The position numbers and the translations under genes were made by a program. 64,000 bases of DNA from Veillonellaceae bacterium SB90 (GTDB taxonomy: Bacteria > Bacillota > Negativicutes > Selenomonadales > Selenomonadaceae). Position 1 is the first letter of the stretch; every line of letters begins with the position of its first letter. Where the stretch lies: contig CABJCJ010000003.1 in the NCBI GenBank assembly GCA_902364065.1, positions 1 to 64,000 on the forward strand, read 5' to 3'. Below are positions 2,955 through 15,201 of the stretch, piece after piece. The notes below the pieces were generated by a model that was given only the letters and a program-made list of their open reading frames with translations, ran no database searches and was not told where the DNA came from.

Positions 2955-2983
2955 TTGAAAGTATGTTTTTTTGTCGATATAAT
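2955..2983 (+). promoter_or_regulatory. Sigma-70 promoter of the nitrogenase-like/hyp cluster
   Basis: TTGAAA (2955-2960) and TATAAT (2978-2983) are separated by exactly 17 bp, placing transcription start near 2990 and leaving a leader of about 30 nt before the Fe-protein gene. It is the first strong promoter after the IS remnant. No sigma-54 (-24/-12) element, typical of classical nif promoters, is seen. Between 2721 and 2954 no gene is apparent. Confidence 0.75.
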
Positions 2984-3020
2984 AAAGACTAGATACTTTT
3001 TTGCAACAGGGGGTTCTATC

Positions 3021-3797
3021 ATGCGCAAGATCGCGATTTACGGCAAGGGTGGCATCGGCAAGTCGACGATGACGAGCAATCTGGCGGCGGCGTTCGCTGC
3101 ACGGGGGAAGCGCGTCATCCAGATTGGCTGCGACCCGAAGGCCGATTCGACCATCAATCTGCTCGGGGGCAAGCCGCTGCTCTCCGTCATGGGCTATATG
3201 CGCGAGTACGACCGGGAGCCGGAGAGTCTCGCGGAAATCTCGCGCGAGGGCTTCGGCGGCGTGCTCTGCATCGAGACGGGCGGGCCGACGCCGGGGCTCG
3301 GCTGTGCGGGACGCGGCATCATCGCGACGTTCGGCCTGCTCGAGGACCTCGAGCTCTTTGAGACGTTCCGGCCCGATGTCGTGCTCTTCGACGTGCTCGG
3401 CGATGTCGTCTGCGGCGGGTTTGCCGCGCCGATCCGCGAAGGGTATGCCGAAGACGTGCTCATTGTGACCTCGGGCGAGAAGATGGCGCTCTACGCGGCG
3501 GACAATATCGCCAAGGCAGTCGAGAATTTTGCCGACCGGGGCTATGCGAAGGTCAGCGGCGTCATCCTTAACCGCCGCAATGTGCCGGATGAACGCAACA
3601 AGGTGGAATCGTTCGCCAAGAATCATGGGCTCGCCATCATTGCCGATATCCCGCGCAGCGATGCCATCAATGTGTATGAGGAGCGCGGCATGACGGTGAT
3701 TGAGGGCGACAGGACGCTGCCCATCAGCCGGAAATTCCTGGAGCTTGCTGACCGCCTGCTCGCCGGCGAGGACGCCGCTCCTTCGCCGGCGCCCTGA
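3021..3797 (+). CDS. NifH-family Fe protein (ATP-dependent reductase of a nitrogenase-like system)
   Basis: A 258-residue homodimeric-type iron protein expected to pass electrons to a NifDK-like partner with ATP hydrolysis. The P-loop GKGGIGKST is at residues 8-16, switch I DPKADST at 38-44, and the two 4Fe-4S cysteines are in GLGCAGRG (C95) and DVVCGGF (C131). The arginine that is ADP-ribosylated in NifH is present (R98). The ATG at 3021 follows an AGGGGG ribosome site; a longer frame upstream lacks one. It is shorter than typical NifH (about 270-295), closer to divergent relatives such as BchL/CfbC. It is first in an operon, 15 bp before a NifD-like gene. The electron acceptor and substrate are unknown; dinitrogen fixation is unlikely because no nifB or FeMo-cofactor genes accompany it. 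Confidence 0.92.
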   Translation: MRKIAIYGKGGIGKSTMTSNLAAAFAARGKRVIQIGCDPKADSTINLLGGKPLLSVMGYMREYDREPESLAEISREGFGGVLCIETGGPTPGLGCAGRGIIATFGLLEDLELFETFRPDVVLFDVLGDVVCGGFAAPIREGYAEDVLIVTSGEKMALYAADNIAKAVENFADRGYAKVSGVILNRRNVPDERNKVESFAKNHGLAIIADIPRSDAINVYEERGMTVIEGDRTLPISRKFLELADRLLAGEDAAPSPAP

Positions 3798-3812
3798 AAG
3801 TGAGGGATCATC

Positions 3813-12467: not shown

Positions 12468-13699
12468 AACAAGTTGCCAGTATCTTATCCACGTACTCCG
12501 CCGATACATTCGGCGTCTGCTCGGCCTTCTTTGAGCTCGGCGGCATGATCGTCATTCACGATCCGTCGGGCTGCAATTCCACGTATACGACGCATGACGA
12601 GCCGCGCTGGTACGACCACGACAGCCTCATCTACGTCTCCGCCATGACGGAGCGCGACGCCGTGCTCGGCGACGACCACCGCCTCATTGAGGAAATCGTC
12701 ACGGCCGCACGCCAGCAGCAGCCCCACTTCATCTGCCTGATTCCCTCGCAGATCGCGCATCTCATCGGCACCGACTGCCGGGCCATCTGCCGCATCATCG
12801 AAAAAAAGACGGGCGTCCCCGCGTTCACGCTGCCGACCAACAGCATGCATTACTACGAGCGCGGCATCAACCTGGCCCTCGAGCATCTGGCGGCCTGGGC
12901 GCTTGGAAAGGGTGCGGCGTCTCCCTCCGGCAGGGATCTTTTGCCAAAGCCTGCCCGTAAAGCAGGCACCGTCAACCGCAGGATCAACCTGCTCGGCCTC
13001 ACGCCGCTCGATTACGGCGCCGCGACGGCCCCCGCCTCGGCGGCGAAATGGCTCGCACAAAACGGCTTCACGCTCGAGGCTTGCTGGGCCATGGGCAGCA
13101 GCCTCGAGGAGATCGCGGCGTCCGCAAGCAATGCCGACTGCAGCCTCGTCATGAGTTACGGCGGCCTCGGCGCCGCGCGCCTGCTCTATGAAAAAGCCGA
13201 CATTCCCTACGTCTGCGGCGCTCCCTTTGGCGCGGCCGGCGAAGTTCTGTCAGCAGCGCTCAAGACCTGCCAGGCTCCGCTTTCTGGCGCGCTCTGGCCA
13301 CACAGCGGGGATAAACCGGGCATACAAAAAAAGCAGGAGATATCTCCTGCTCCCTGCTGCATCATCGGTGAAACCGTCTTTGCCCAGTCCCTGGCTCATG
13401 CGCTTGAAAAGGCAACTGGCCAGGCTTTCACGGCCATCGTCCCCGTCGAGACGGACCGGGAAATCCTCGCTGCCGGCACGCTGCTGCTCTGTGATGAAGA
13501 CGAGCTGCGGCCGCGCCTCCGGGACGCCCGCCTCGTCATCGCCGACCCGCTCTACGCGCCCATCGTCCCGGACACCTGCCATTTTGTCGCGCTGCCCCAC
13601 CGGGGCTTCTCGGGCCGCACCTATGAACGGCAGCTGCCCGACCTGATGGACGCCGCCATGTATCACGATTTCCTCCAGGAGGTTCGCTCATGCTTCTGA
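12464..13699 (+). CDS. NifK-like subunit of pair 2
   Basis: A 411-residue paralogue of the K-like protein encoded at 5159. Shared landmarks are ELGGMIVIHDPSGC (C37), HDEPRW, LIGTDCRAICRI and LLGLTPLDYG. Cysteine 37 is the single retained P-cluster-type position; the later one reads IPSQIAHLIGTD. Together with the three cysteines of its D partner this gives four ligands, the number needed for one 4Fe-4S cluster at the subunit interface, as in protochlorophyllide reductase-like enzymes; that is inference. It starts by ATGA overlap and ends overlapping the small membrane gene by 10 bp, so all are probably co-translated. Confidence 0.78.
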   Translation: MKQVASILSTYSADTFGVCSAFFELGGMIVIHDPSGCNSTYTTHDEPRWYDHDSLIYVSAMTERDAVLGDDHRLIEEIVTAARQQQPHFICLIPSQIAHLIGTDCRAICRIIEKKTGVPAFTLPTNSMHYYERGINLALEHLAAWALGKGAASPSGRDLLPKPARKAGTVNRRINLLGLTPLDYGAATAPASAAKWLAQNGFTLEACWAMGSSLEEIAASASNADCSLVMSYGGLGAARLLYEKADIPYVCGAPFGAAGEVLSAALKTCQAPLSGALWPHSGDKPGIQKKQEISPAPCCIIGETVFAQSLAHALEKATGQAFTAIVPVETDREILAAGTLLLCDEDELRPRLRDARLVIADPLYAPIVPDTCHFVALPHRGFSGRTYERQLPDLMDAAMYHDFLQEVRSCF

Positions 13700-13971
13700 C
13701 CATTGCCCATGTCTTTGCCTACGCCATCATCCAGACGTTCGGCTTCACGCTCTTCACGCTGGCGCTGCAGCGCCTCGGCCACCTGCAGCGGCTCTACAGG
13801 CTAAAGGCGTTCCTGTTCCTCGTCATGGTCAACGCCGCCGGTACGATGACCTTCGGCGAAGCCGCCTGGGGACGCACCTCCACGCCCGTCGCCGCCGGCC
13901 TCTTCCTCATCGGCATGGCCTTCTTTCTCGCCGCCCATTTCTACCTCGGCTGGAAAAAGCTTCGCCGGTAA
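13690..13971 (+). CDS. Small integral membrane protein of the nitrogenase-like cluster
   Basis: A 93-residue hydrophobic protein with two or three membrane segments (about residues 5-25, 38-52 and 66-86) and a basic end (WKKLRR). It overlaps the K-like gene by 10 bp, which ties its expression to the cluster. I do not recognise the family. Possible roles are membrane anchoring of the complex, electron supply, or acting with the transporter that follows 51 bp downstream. Confidence 0.7.
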   Translation: MLLTIAHVFAYAIIQTFGFTLFTLALQRLGHLQRLYRLKAFLFLVMVNAAGTMTFGEAAWGRTSTPVAAGLFLIGMAFFLAAHFYLGWKKLRR

Positions 13972-14022
13972 CGTCCAGCGAAAATAAAAACATCCGCTCA
14001 TCATGCGAAAGGACCTGATCCT

Positions 14023-15201
14023 CTGAACAAGAAATATCTCTATCTGCTCGCCGCTGCTCATCTGAGCAACGACATCAACACGGGCTCCCTGCCCGCCCTG
14101 CTGCCTTTCTTCGTCAGCTTCTACGGCATGGATTACACGGCGATTGCCGGGCTCATGTTCGCGTCTTCCTTCCTGAGCTCCATCATCCAGCCCCTGTTCG
14201 GCTGGCTCGCGGACAAAGGCTCGCGCCAGTGGTTCATGGCCGTCGGTGTCTTTTTCGCCGGGACCTCGCTGGCGCTCACCGGCTTTGTCACCAATTACTG
14301 GCTGATCTTTGCCGCCGTCACCATCATGGGCATCGCCAGCTCCATCTTCCATCCCGAAGCGGCCCGCTGCGTCAACGGCGTCTCACAGGGGGCGCGCGGC
14401 AAGGGCATGAGCATCTTCAGTGTCGGCGGCAACGGCGGCTTCGGCTTTGGGCCGCTGCTCGCCGTCTTCCTCGTCACGACCTTCGGCATGCACGGTCTGG
14501 CCTTCTACGGCATCACGGCCATCGCCATGAGCCTCCTGCTCCTGCTGGCCATCCCGCATCTGCGCCGTGCCATTGCTGCCAACCAGCAAAGGGCGCAGGA
14601 AAAGACCGCGGCAGAGTCAAAAGACGCCGGTCAGCCTGCCGTCAATGACTGGCATGCCTTCGGGCGCCTCTTTGTCGTCATCCTCTTCCGCTCGACGGTC
14701 TTCACGGGCATATCGAGCTTCCTGCCGCTCTTCTGCATCCAGGCACTCGGCACGAGTGAAGCCATCGGCTCGATGACACTTTCCATCATCAGCATCGCCG
14801 GCGTCGTCGCCACCCTCTTCGGCGGCTGGTTCGCCGACCGCCACGGCTACCGCAGGACTTTGCGCCTCGGCAGCGTCCTGCTCGTCCCGTTCCTGGCGAT
14901 TGCCGTCTTCTCCGGCAGCATCTACGCCGTCTACGTCATGCTCCTGCCGCTGAGCTTCGCCATGCTCGCGCCCTACTCGTCCTTCGTCGTCATCGGCCAG
15001 GAATACCTCGCCAAGAATATCGGCTTCGCCTCCGGCGTCACGCTCGGCATCTCCATGAGCATCGGCGGCATCATCGCCCCCGCCCTCGGCCGCTACGCTG
15101 ACATCTACGGCATCACCGCCGTCATGGGCCTGCTCGTACTGCTCGCTGCCATCTGCGCCGGCGCCACCTTCCTGCTGCCGGCCAGAAAGCGCAACGCCTG
15201 A
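14023..15201 (+). CDS. MFS transporter of the fosmidomycin-resistance (Fsr) type
   Basis: A 392-residue major facilitator protein. The N-terminus reads AAHLSNDINTGSLPALLPFF, a layout typical of Fsr-like exporters, and about 12 hydrophobic segments follow, with the MFS loop FGWLADKGSRQW after helix 2 and GGWFADRHGYRRT in the second half. No ATG covers the first helix: the frame opens upstream of the ATG at 14128, and CTG at 14023, nine bases after AAAGGA, restores a full helix 1. The substrate is unknown. As last gene of the cluster it may move the substrate or product of the nitrogenase-like enzyme, or simply be a drug exporter. Confidence 0.85.
   Translation: MNKKYLYLLAAAHLSNDINTGSLPALLPFFVSFYGMDYTAIAGLMFASSFLSSIIQPLFGWLADKGSRQWFMAVGVFFAGTSLALTGFVTNYWLIFAAVTIMGIASSIFHPEAARCVNGVSQGARGKGMSIFSVGGNGGFGFGPLLAVFLVTTFGMHGLAFYGITAIAMSLLLLLAIPHLRRAIAANQQRAQEKTAAESKDAGQPAVNDWHAFGRLFVVILFRSTVFTGISSFLPLFCIQALGTSEAIGSMTLSIISIAGVVATLFGGWFADRHGYRRTLRLGSVLLVPFLAIAVFSGSIYAVYVMLLPLSFAMLAPYSSFVVIGQEYLAKNIGFASGVTLGISMSIGGIIAPALGRYADIYGITAVMGLLVLLAAICAGATFLLPARKRNA

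What the first reader, a model, noticed from the sequence alone, without database searches (positions are those of the whole stretch)
2955..15201. Nitrogenase-like system with two D/K pairs wrapped around a complete Fe(CN)2CO pathway (hypFCDE)
One promoter is followed by a NifH-family Fe protein, a NifD/NifK-like pair, hypF, hypC, hypD, hypE, a second NifD/NifK-like pair, a small membrane protein and a transporter, all on one strand and mostly overlapping or closely spaced. Known nitrogenase relatives (NifHDK/EN, BchLNB, BchXYZ, CfbCD, MarHDK) are, as far as I know, not built together with hydrogenase-cofactor genes. The arrangement suggests an ATP-driven reductase whose active site or assembly uses an iron atom with CO and CN ligands. 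This is inference from gene order; the alternative is that the hyp genes serve a hydrogenase elsewhere and are merely co-located.
Basis: partly seen in the sequence, partly recalled or inferred. Interest (0 to 1): 0.96.

Follow-up and report, generated by a model that had tools for sequence, protein, structure and literature searches.

The report
Nitrogenase-like bypass of hydrogenase maturase HydG
A conserved bacterial operon joins two nitrogenase-like protein pairs to the four genes that make iron carrying cyanide and carbon monoxide, and it likely replaces HydG, the enzyme that otherwise supplies such iron for the active site of [FeFe]-hydrogenases.

Summary
In detail: 2955-15201 holds NifH, D1/K1, HypF-C-D-E, D2/K2, a small membrane protein and an MFS gene on one strand behind a promoter-like site. 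Of 47 well-flanked homologous loci, 47 have HypF and HypC, 46 HypD, 44 HypE. The hyp genes do not generally serve a NiFe hydrogenase: 34 of 50 hosts tested have no match to one, and 12 of the 16 others have extra HypD matches. 48 of 80 loci contain TM1266, HydF or HydE, [FeFe]-hydrogenase genes, and none contains HydG. Of 50 hosts, 49 have an [FeFe]-hydrogenase, 47 HydF, at least 45 HydE, but only 2 HydG. In three wider samples HydG is in 0 of 37 D1 genomes, although common in the rest. Best reading: an ATP-driven HydG bypass making the CO/CN-ligated iron for HydE/HydF. That role is inferred, not shown. The Nif-like/Hyp association was noted in one sentence in 2012 (PMC3464626); nine library searches listed no paper that proposes the HydG link.

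The parts
2955..2983 (+). sigma-70-type promoter-like site TTGAAA-17-TATAAT
   Evidence: 11 of 12 consensus matches; consensus match only
3021..3797 (+). NifH-family Fe protein (258 aa) with P-loop and cysteines C95 and C131 conserved (cluster role recalled)
   Evidence: PF00142 E 2.8e-87; below the nifH cut-off, 299 of 394 bits, and those of CfbC, BchL and BchX; conservation in 120 aligned rows
3813..5162 (+). D1, NifD/NifE-like subunit (449 aa), cysteines C75, C76, C133, C136, C149, C163 conserved
   Evidence: PF00148 E 5.1e-25; model pLDDT 84.9, nearest solved folds NifK and NifEN, TM about 0.6-0.66; C76 and C136 align with NifE cysteines 70 and 132
5159..6211 (+). K1, NifK-like partner of D1 (350 aa), C37 and C42 conserved
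   Evidence: PF00148 E 3.5e-13; overlaps D1 by ATGA; D1 frames long enough to hold K1 in 7 of 80 loci
6310..8673 (+). HypF carbamoyltransferase (787 aa)
   Evidence: TIGR00143 759.6 bits, cut-off 466.1
8760..8969 (+). HypC chaperone, N-terminal Met-Cys
   Evidence: TIGR00074 67.1 bits, cut-off 48; Cys conserved
8966..10027 (+). HypD (353 aa)
   Evidence: TIGR00075 373.2 bits, cut-off 192.8
10041..11084 (+). HypE (347 aa) ending in PRIC, the cyanide-carrying cysteine
   Evidence: TIGR02124 403.4 bits, cut-off 251.6; C347 conserved
11124..12467 (+). D2, second NifD/NifE-like subunit (447 aa from the TTG at 11124; frame open from 11094); C67, C71, C131 conserved (numbered from 11094)
   Evidence: PF00148 E 1.6e-13; start; model pLDDT 83.4, nearest NifEN, Fe-nitrogenase, DPOR
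12464..13699 (+). K2, second NifK-like subunit (411 aa), C37 conserved
   Evidence: PF00148 E 6e-23
13690..13971 (+). small membrane protein (93 aa)
   Evidence: a relative was seen in 1 of 80 loci (L022) and in L166, so not part of the conserved core
14026..15201 (+). MFS transporter (start uncertain: 14026 is a CTG, first listed ATG 14128)
   Evidence: PF07690 E 7e-37; no match in the 80 loci, so probably not part of the system

Best explanation
The window holds a conserved operon (an Fe protein, two NifD/K-like pairs and HypF-C-D-E) that most likely takes the place of HydG, supplying the iron with CO and CN ligands from which the [FeFe]-hydrogenase active site would be built. Proposed steps, all inferred: HypF and HypE turn carbamoyl phosphate into a HypE-thiocyanate; HypC-HypD load cyanide on one iron; the Fe protein drives the D/K pairs with ATP to supply the CO ligands (perhaps by reducing CO2) and to hold or finish the Fe(CN)(CO)2 unit in a NifEN-like way. 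The unit would then pass to HydE, HydF and the apo-hydrogenase as HydG's product does. Shown here: the gene set, its conservation, its link to HydE/HydF/TM1266 genes and the near-absence of HydG from its hosts.
For: Operon neighbours: 48 of 80 loci carry TM1266, HydF or HydE within the fetched flanks, some between D1 and K1 or between HypE and the second NifH; HydG, HydA and NiFe large subunit, searched in the same run, were in none (one member of each family confirmed by NCBIfam). These three and a generic ABC ATPase were the only neighbour families in 6 or more loci. Hosts: of 50, 49 have HydA, 47 HydF, at least 45 HydE, 50 HypD, 2 HydG. Samples: phylum of Anaerobutyricum, 249 genomes: HydG in 0 of 4 D1 genomes against 135 of 140 other HydF genomes (Fisher p 7e-6). 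Class of Mitsuokella, 150: 0 of 13 against 110 of 137 (p 7e-9). Family of Anaerobutyricum, 298: 0 of 24 against 132 of 274 (p 4e-7). Without the centre genomes, which I chose, p is 1e-4, 2e-8 and 7e-7. Four sub-cut-off HydG-like hits tested are ThiH. HypE PRIC and HypC Cys are conserved. A survey of acetogens left missing HydG unexplained (PMC9431212, passages and one section); for the four species that I also tested (ljungdahlii, ragsdalei, carboxidivorans without HydG, drakei with it) one search agrees with it.
Against: No biochemistry. The window's 64 kb has no HydE, HydF or TM1266 match and its genome is not held. Five HydF-positive, HydG-negative genomes lack D1 (G099, G126, G149, G225, G291), so missing HydG is not always matched by this locus. 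Two hosts, C. drakei and C. thailandense, have both. 32 of 80 loci show no TM1266, HydF or HydE in the fetched flanks, 16 of them among the 47 well-flanked loci. Canonical HypCDEF makes Fe(CN)2CO, whereas HydE's known substrate is Fe(CN)(CO)2, so the chemistry must differ at that step. Labelling ruled out added CO2 as direct source of the NiFe CO ligand in Ralstonia eutropha (PMC12134894, passage), which speaks against, but does not test, the CO2 step here. Tests are not corrected for shared ancestry, and many genomes are metagenome-assembled.
Confidence: 0.72

Rival explanations
1. The operon encodes a free-standing ATP-driven reductase whose own active site carries an iron with CO and CN ligands and acts on a small molecule.
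For: Complete Fe protein plus two D/K pairs, below the cut-offs of the characterised families and apart from them in a tree; no hypA or hypB in the operon.
Against: The recurrent neighbours are [FeFe]-hydrogenase maturation genes, not substrate-handling genes; it does not explain why hosts lack HydG.
Confidence: 0.12
2. The hyp genes serve an ordinary NiFe hydrogenase elsewhere and are merely next to the D/K genes.
For: 16 of 50 hosts have a PF00374 match. In C. ljungdahlii and C. ragsdalei (G019, G011) there is a single HypD match, beside one group 1a NiFe hydrogenase and without HypAB (PMC9431212); in G019 it is the HypD of this operon by its position.
Against: 34 of 50 hosts have no PF00374 match yet one HypD match each. 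12 of the 16 with a match have two or more HypD matches, one of them on the same contig within about 7 kb of the NiFe match; no NiFe-negative host has a second HypD. In G013 the extra matches are two contig-edge pieces under the cut-off, and in G013 and G014 the NiFe match covers only about 70 of 508 positions.
Confidence: 0.05
3. HydG is replaced, but the D/K pairs act only as NifEN-like scaffolds or carriers or as reductants for HypCD, and CO comes from another source (a narrower form of the best explanation, so its odds overlap with it).
For: D1 and D2 resemble NifE and NifEN best by profile or fold and lack the FeMoco cysteine ligand.
Against: Two full D/K pairs, often each with its own Fe protein (second NifH in 30 of 47 loci), suggest more than one reductive step.
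Confidence: 0.3
4. HydG is missing because another radical SAM enzyme does its job, or because free CO and CN from the cell suffice; the Nif-like/Hyp locus is unrelated.
For: PMC9431212 (section read) proposed an atypical HydG-like radical SAM protein in acetogens, and recalls about 1% activation by HydE and HydF without HydG in vitro.
Against: The HydG-profile hits tested here (4 of 4) score over the ThiH cut-off; 20 of 50 hosts have no hit of that strength; it leaves the operon neighbours unexplained.
Confidence: 0.08

Closest known systems
HydG branch of [FeFe]-hydrogenase maturation (HydE, HydF, HydG)
   Same: Works in hosts with HydA, HydE and HydF; TM1266, HydE and HydF are frequent neighbours.
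   Different: No tyrosine-cleaving radical SAM enzyme; instead Fe protein, two D/K pairs and HypCDEF; HydG in 2 of 50 hosts.
HypABCDEF maturation of NiFe hydrogenases
   Same: HypF, C, D, E over their cut-offs with conserved key residues.
   Different: No hypA, hypB or hydrogenase gene in the window's operon; 34 of 50 hosts have no NiFe large subunit match.
NifEN / NifDK nitrogenase and assembly scaffold
   Same: Fold and distant sequence similarity, Fe protein, some cysteines of the P-cluster type (role recalled).
   Different: Position of the FeMoco cysteine holds Asp (D1) or Thr (D2); D and K form clades apart from NifDKEN and BchNB (long reference branches).
Group IV nitrogenase-like proteins beside hydrogenase maturation genes (Dos Santos et al. 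2012, PMC3464626)
   Same: Same kind of gene association, noted for Coprococcus catus and other Firmicutes (passages).
   Different: In the passages seen it is one sentence that names neither HydG nor [FeFe]-hydrogenase; its supplement (gene neighbourhoods) was not read.
CfbCD, DPOR, COR, methylthio-alkane reductase
   Same: NifH-like ATPase with D/K-like partner(s).
   Different: Below the NCBIfam cut-offs for CfbC, BchL and BchX; none is described with hypCDEF (recalled).

Membership tests
Nitrogenase (NifHDK) | NifH and NifD/K equivalog score | tested here: not met
   nifH 299.4 of 394.35 bits; best D/K-type model nifE, at most 50.3 of 505.1
Nitrogenase (NifHDK) | FeMoco ligand cysteine in the alpha subunit | tested here: not met
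   aligned position is Asp250 in D1 and Thr244 in D2 (the D2-NifD alignment itself is weak, the D2-NifE one better)
CfbCD (F430 synthesis) | CfbC and CfbD equivalog score | tested here: not met
   CfbC 289.6 of 402; CfbD model best 29.9 of 268.4
DPOR/COR (BchLNB, BchXYZ) | BchL/BchX equivalog score and tree position of D/K | tested here: not met
   212 of 345 and 199 of 331 bits; separate clades (long reference branches)
Fe(CN)2CO pathway (HypCDEF) | All four proteins over family cut-off, HypE PRIC and HypC N-terminal Cys kept | tested here: met
NiFe hydrogenase maturation | NiFe large subunit in the same genomes | tested here: not met
   present in 16, absent in 34 of 50 hosts; window's genome not held
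[FeFe]-hydrogenase maturation | HydA, HydE and HydF in the same genomes | tested here: met
   HydA 49, HydF 47, HydE at least 45 of 50
[FeFe]-hydrogenase maturation | Maturase genes in the same operon | tested here: inconclusive
   TM1266, HydF or HydE in 48 of 80 loci, but none in the window
[FeFe]-hydrogenase maturation | HydG | tested here: not met
   2 of 50 hosts; 0 of 80 loci; 0 of 37 D1 genomes in the samples
[FeFe]-hydrogenase maturation | Product is an H-cluster precursor | not testable with these tools
   needs isotope labelling and infrared spectroscopy

The most novel reading that the evidence does not exclude
Life has a second way to make the [FeFe]-hydrogenase H-cluster: ATP-driven nitrogenase-like enzymes reduce CO2 to CO and, with HypCDEF-made cyanide, build the Fe(CN)(CO)2 unit that HydG makes from tyrosine elsewhere; three cofactor worlds (nitrogenase, NiFe and FeFe hydrogenase) merge in one operon common in gut anaerobes and acetogens.
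Probability: 0.35. Interest if true: 0.97.

Novelty: categorically new. Interest (0 to 1): 0.93.

Why it matters
HydG is regarded as a required enzyme of H-cluster assembly (PMC12752695, abstract and passages), yet nearly all hosts of this operon tested here, acetogens and gut or rumen anaerobes among them, have an [FeFe]-hydrogenase and no HydG, and a survey of acetogens could not explain the gap (PMC9431212). This operon would fill it. It would also give a function to an uncharacterised group of nitrogenase relatives, and a genetic handle on the unresolved origin of the CO ligand in anaerobes, called the most pressing question of the NiFe field (PMC12134894, abstract and passages). It makes a clear prediction: H-cluster cyanide in these hosts should come from carbamoyl phosphate, not tyrosine.

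Tried and rejected
Own-genome search: no genome is held for the window. NiFe service of the hyp genes: rejected as a general account. MFS and small membrane protein as parts of the system: no MFS match in the 80 loci, and the membrane protein in L022 alone of them, also in L166. HydE, HydF or TM1266 in the window: no match (single-sequence queries). Sub-cut-off HydG hits as a hidden HydG: the 4 tested are ThiH. In-frame TAG in D1 of three genomes: only the terminal stop.

Counting choices. D1-like matches of 210-335 bits (7 genomes over two samples) were counted as paralogues, not D1; 5 of these 7 (G065, G172, G221, G262, G648) have HydG, 2 (G438, G483) do not. G691 (431 bits) and a truncated match (G692, 331 bits over 178 positions) were counted as D1. 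For HydE, 48 candidate stretches were fetched; 45 were scanned, and 3 left out: G042 (102 bits), a second one of G001 (96 bits) and a second one of G031 (270 bits). The second, pooled Fisher test used hand-set counts and is not relied on. Each sample holds its centre genome, a D1 host that I chose; one search repeats the tests without them. Reference branches in both trees are long, so the root and the reference positions are unsure. Only the best 80 of 518 matching stretches were read; 50 of the 80 genomes were tested, picked by hand mostly for long contigs. They are chosen for likeness to D1, so the frequency of hyp genes among remoter relatives is unknown. A completeness of 90% was asked for in the samples, but no completeness was reported back.

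
Full report
Observation. The operon is as described. One promoter-like site (2955-2983) precedes NifH, D1, K1, HypF, HypC, HypD, HypE, D2 and K2, with stop-start overlaps at D1/K1, HypC/HypD and D2/K2. Pfam and NCBIfam name the Hyp proteins with scores over their cut-offs. NifH and the four D/K proteins match PF00142 and PF00148 but stay below the cut-offs of the characterised nitrogenase-type NCBIfam models listed.

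What the D/K proteins are. AlphaFold models of D1 and D2 (pLDDT 84.9 and 83.4) match nitrogenase, NifEN and methylthio-alkane reductase subunits, D2 also DPOR, with TM about 0.56-0.66. In a tree with NifD, K, E, N and BchN, B, D1 and D2 fall together, K1 and K2 fall together, and all lie apart from the references, with a Treponema plasmid pair among them (reference branches are long). So the two pairs look like an old duplication of one pair. Profile alignment puts D1 Cys76 and Cys136 on NifE Cys70 and Cys132, D2 Cys131 on NifE Cys132 and K2 Cys37 on NifK Cys95 (P-cluster type by recall), while the position of the cofactor cysteine holds Asp or Thr. This fits a 4Fe-4S site and no FeMoco-like cluster (inference).

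Conservation. A scan of GTDB genomes with the D1 alignment found 518 stretches that encode a relative; the best 80 were kept. By record title they come from Selenomonadaceae, Veillonellaceae and Megasphaera, Lachnospiraceae, Clostridium (acetogens among them), Coriobacteriaceae, Atopobiaceae and Lentisphaeria, among others. Of 47 loci with at least 8.5 kb on both sides of D1, 47 have HypF, 47 HypC, 47 K1 (separate, or a D1 frame long enough to hold it), 46 NifH, 46 HypD, 44 HypE, 44 D2, 43 K2; 30 have a second NifH. NifH next to D1 and NifH next to D2 fall in separate groups of the tree, whose deep branches are weak.

Not a NiFe helper. Of 50 host genomes, 16 have a PF00374 match, two of them (G013, G014) over only about 70 of 508 positions. 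All 50 have HypD; 12 have two or more matches, all among the 16 (in G013 the extra ones are contig-edge pieces under the cut-off); the other 34 have exactly one. In all 12 one HypD lies on the same contig within about 7 kb of the NiFe match. NiFe-positive hosts with one HypD are G011 (C. ragsdalei), G015 (C. drakei), G019 (C. ljungdahlii) and G038. In G038 (L053) the locus lacks NifH, HypD and HypE and the only HypD sits by the NiFe gene, which suggests that HypD can be shared.

The clue from the neighbours. Clustering the other genes of the 80 loci gave only four families present in 6 or more loci: TM1266, HydF, HydE and a generic ABC ATPase (one member each of the first three confirmed by NCBIfam). 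With a direct search 48 of 80 loci hold at least one of TM1266 (33), HydF (24) or HydE (14), 31 of 47 among the well-flanked; HydG, HydA and NiFe large subunit were searched in the same run and found in none. In several Megasphaera loci the order is TM1266-NifH-D1-K1-HypF-C-D-E-(NifH)-D2-K2-(NifH)-HydF; the unnamed sampled genome G329 has it too (L165). In others HydE, or HydE and HydF, sit between D1 and K1 (L036, L038, L059). In C. drakei, which has both systems, hydG has a TM1266-like frame just upstream (L097, my reading), where the Megasphaera operons have NifH.

The test. If the operon replaces HydG, its hosts should have HydA, HydE and HydF but not HydG. In the 50 hosts: HydA 49 (miss G041), HydF 47 (misses G006, G020, G031), HydE in 45, each scanned and matched (the rest: G042 low score, G006, G016, G021 and G029 no candidate by this indirect route), HydG 2. 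Three wider samples gave the contrast. Phylum of Anaerobutyricum (it includes Mitsuokella and Megasphaera), 249 genomes: HydF 144, HydG 135, D1 4; all four D1 genomes lack HydG, while 135 of the other 140 HydF genomes have it. Class of Mitsuokella, 150: D1 13, HydG 110, overlap 0. Family of Anaerobutyricum, 298: D1 24, HydG 132, overlap 0. Fisher p values are 7e-6, 7e-9 and 4e-7, and 1e-4, 2e-8 and 7e-7 without the centre genomes; none is corrected for ancestry. Joined, 0 of 37 distinct D1 genomes of the samples (0 of 35 without centres), and 2 of 77 with the named hosts added, have HydG (counts). In the last two samples HydF was not searched, so genomes without any hydrogenase are among those lacking both.

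Mechanism. HydG makes Fe(II)(cys)(CN)(CO)2 from tyrosine and hands it to HydE (PMC12752695, passages). HypF and HypE make cyanide from carbamoyl phosphate and HypCD carries the iron; the anaerobic source of CO is unresolved, and added CO2 was ruled out as a direct source in Ralstonia eutropha (PMC12134894, abstract and passages). The nitrogenase Fe protein can act as a reductase of CO2 on its own (PMC9571451, search listing with start of the abstract). I therefore propose that cyanide comes from HypEF, that the Fe protein and one D/K pair supply CO, and that the other pair completes or holds the unit for HydE. Only the replacement of HydG is well supported; the division of labour is a guess.

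Known work. Dos Santos et al. [quoted passage not shown] A 2022 survey of acetogens (PMC9431212, passages and one section) found HydE and HydF but often no HydG, and in five of eight HypCDEF without HypAB, and could not explain it; the passages that I saw did not link the two. Nine library searches on this listed no paper that, by title and start of abstract, proposes this operon as a HydG substitute; of the listed papers I opened five (PMC3464626, PMC9431212, PMC7764203, PMC12134894, PMC12752695), in passages. The library holds open-licence papers only, and no supplements were read.

Verdict. A real, widespread and conserved system. The parts are known families; the combination and the proposed pathway are not described in what I could search. 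Confidence 0.72 that it replaces HydG, about 0.35 that the nitrogenase-like part makes the CO.

Noticed in passing
L022, L024, L026, L045, L047, L054, L074 (D1 frames of 794-876 codons): D1 and K1 appear fused into a single open frame in 7 of 80 loci; frame lengths suggest the same in G254, G492, G602 and G684.
   Followed up: partly
L053 (genome G038): A locus without NifH, HypD and HypE; the genome's only HypD match lies next to its NiFe match.
   Followed up: partly
G099, G126, G149, G225, G291: Five genomes with HydF but neither HydG nor D1; another bypass, a dead pathway or assembly gaps.
   Followed up: no
L109:13959-17132 (Treponema saccharophilum plasmid pTS1): A NifH-D-K trio related to this family beside an iron ABC transporter, with no hyp gene annotated in the 28.7 kb stretch.
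   Followed up: partly
L016, L037, L075: Megasphaera loci with an Fe protein gene placed after K2, next to HydF.
   Followed up: no
window 17674-21243 (-): Large cell-surface protein with collagen-like GEKGEKGDKGDTGA repeats and an apparent S-layer-type stretch near the C-terminus (my reading).
   Followed up: no
window 241-2045 (-): A DNA methyltransferase-like frame followed by a restriction-endonuclease-like frame just upstream of the operon (my reading).
   Followed up: no
window 15216-15600: Short sequence that seems to repeat with variations just downstream of the operon (seen in overlapping frames), perhaps intergenic repeats.
   Followed up: no
Clostridium ljungdahlii and C. ragsdalei (G019, G011): A NiFe match with a single HypD in the genome and no HypAB reported (PMC9431212): possible double use of HypCDEF.
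   Followed up: partly
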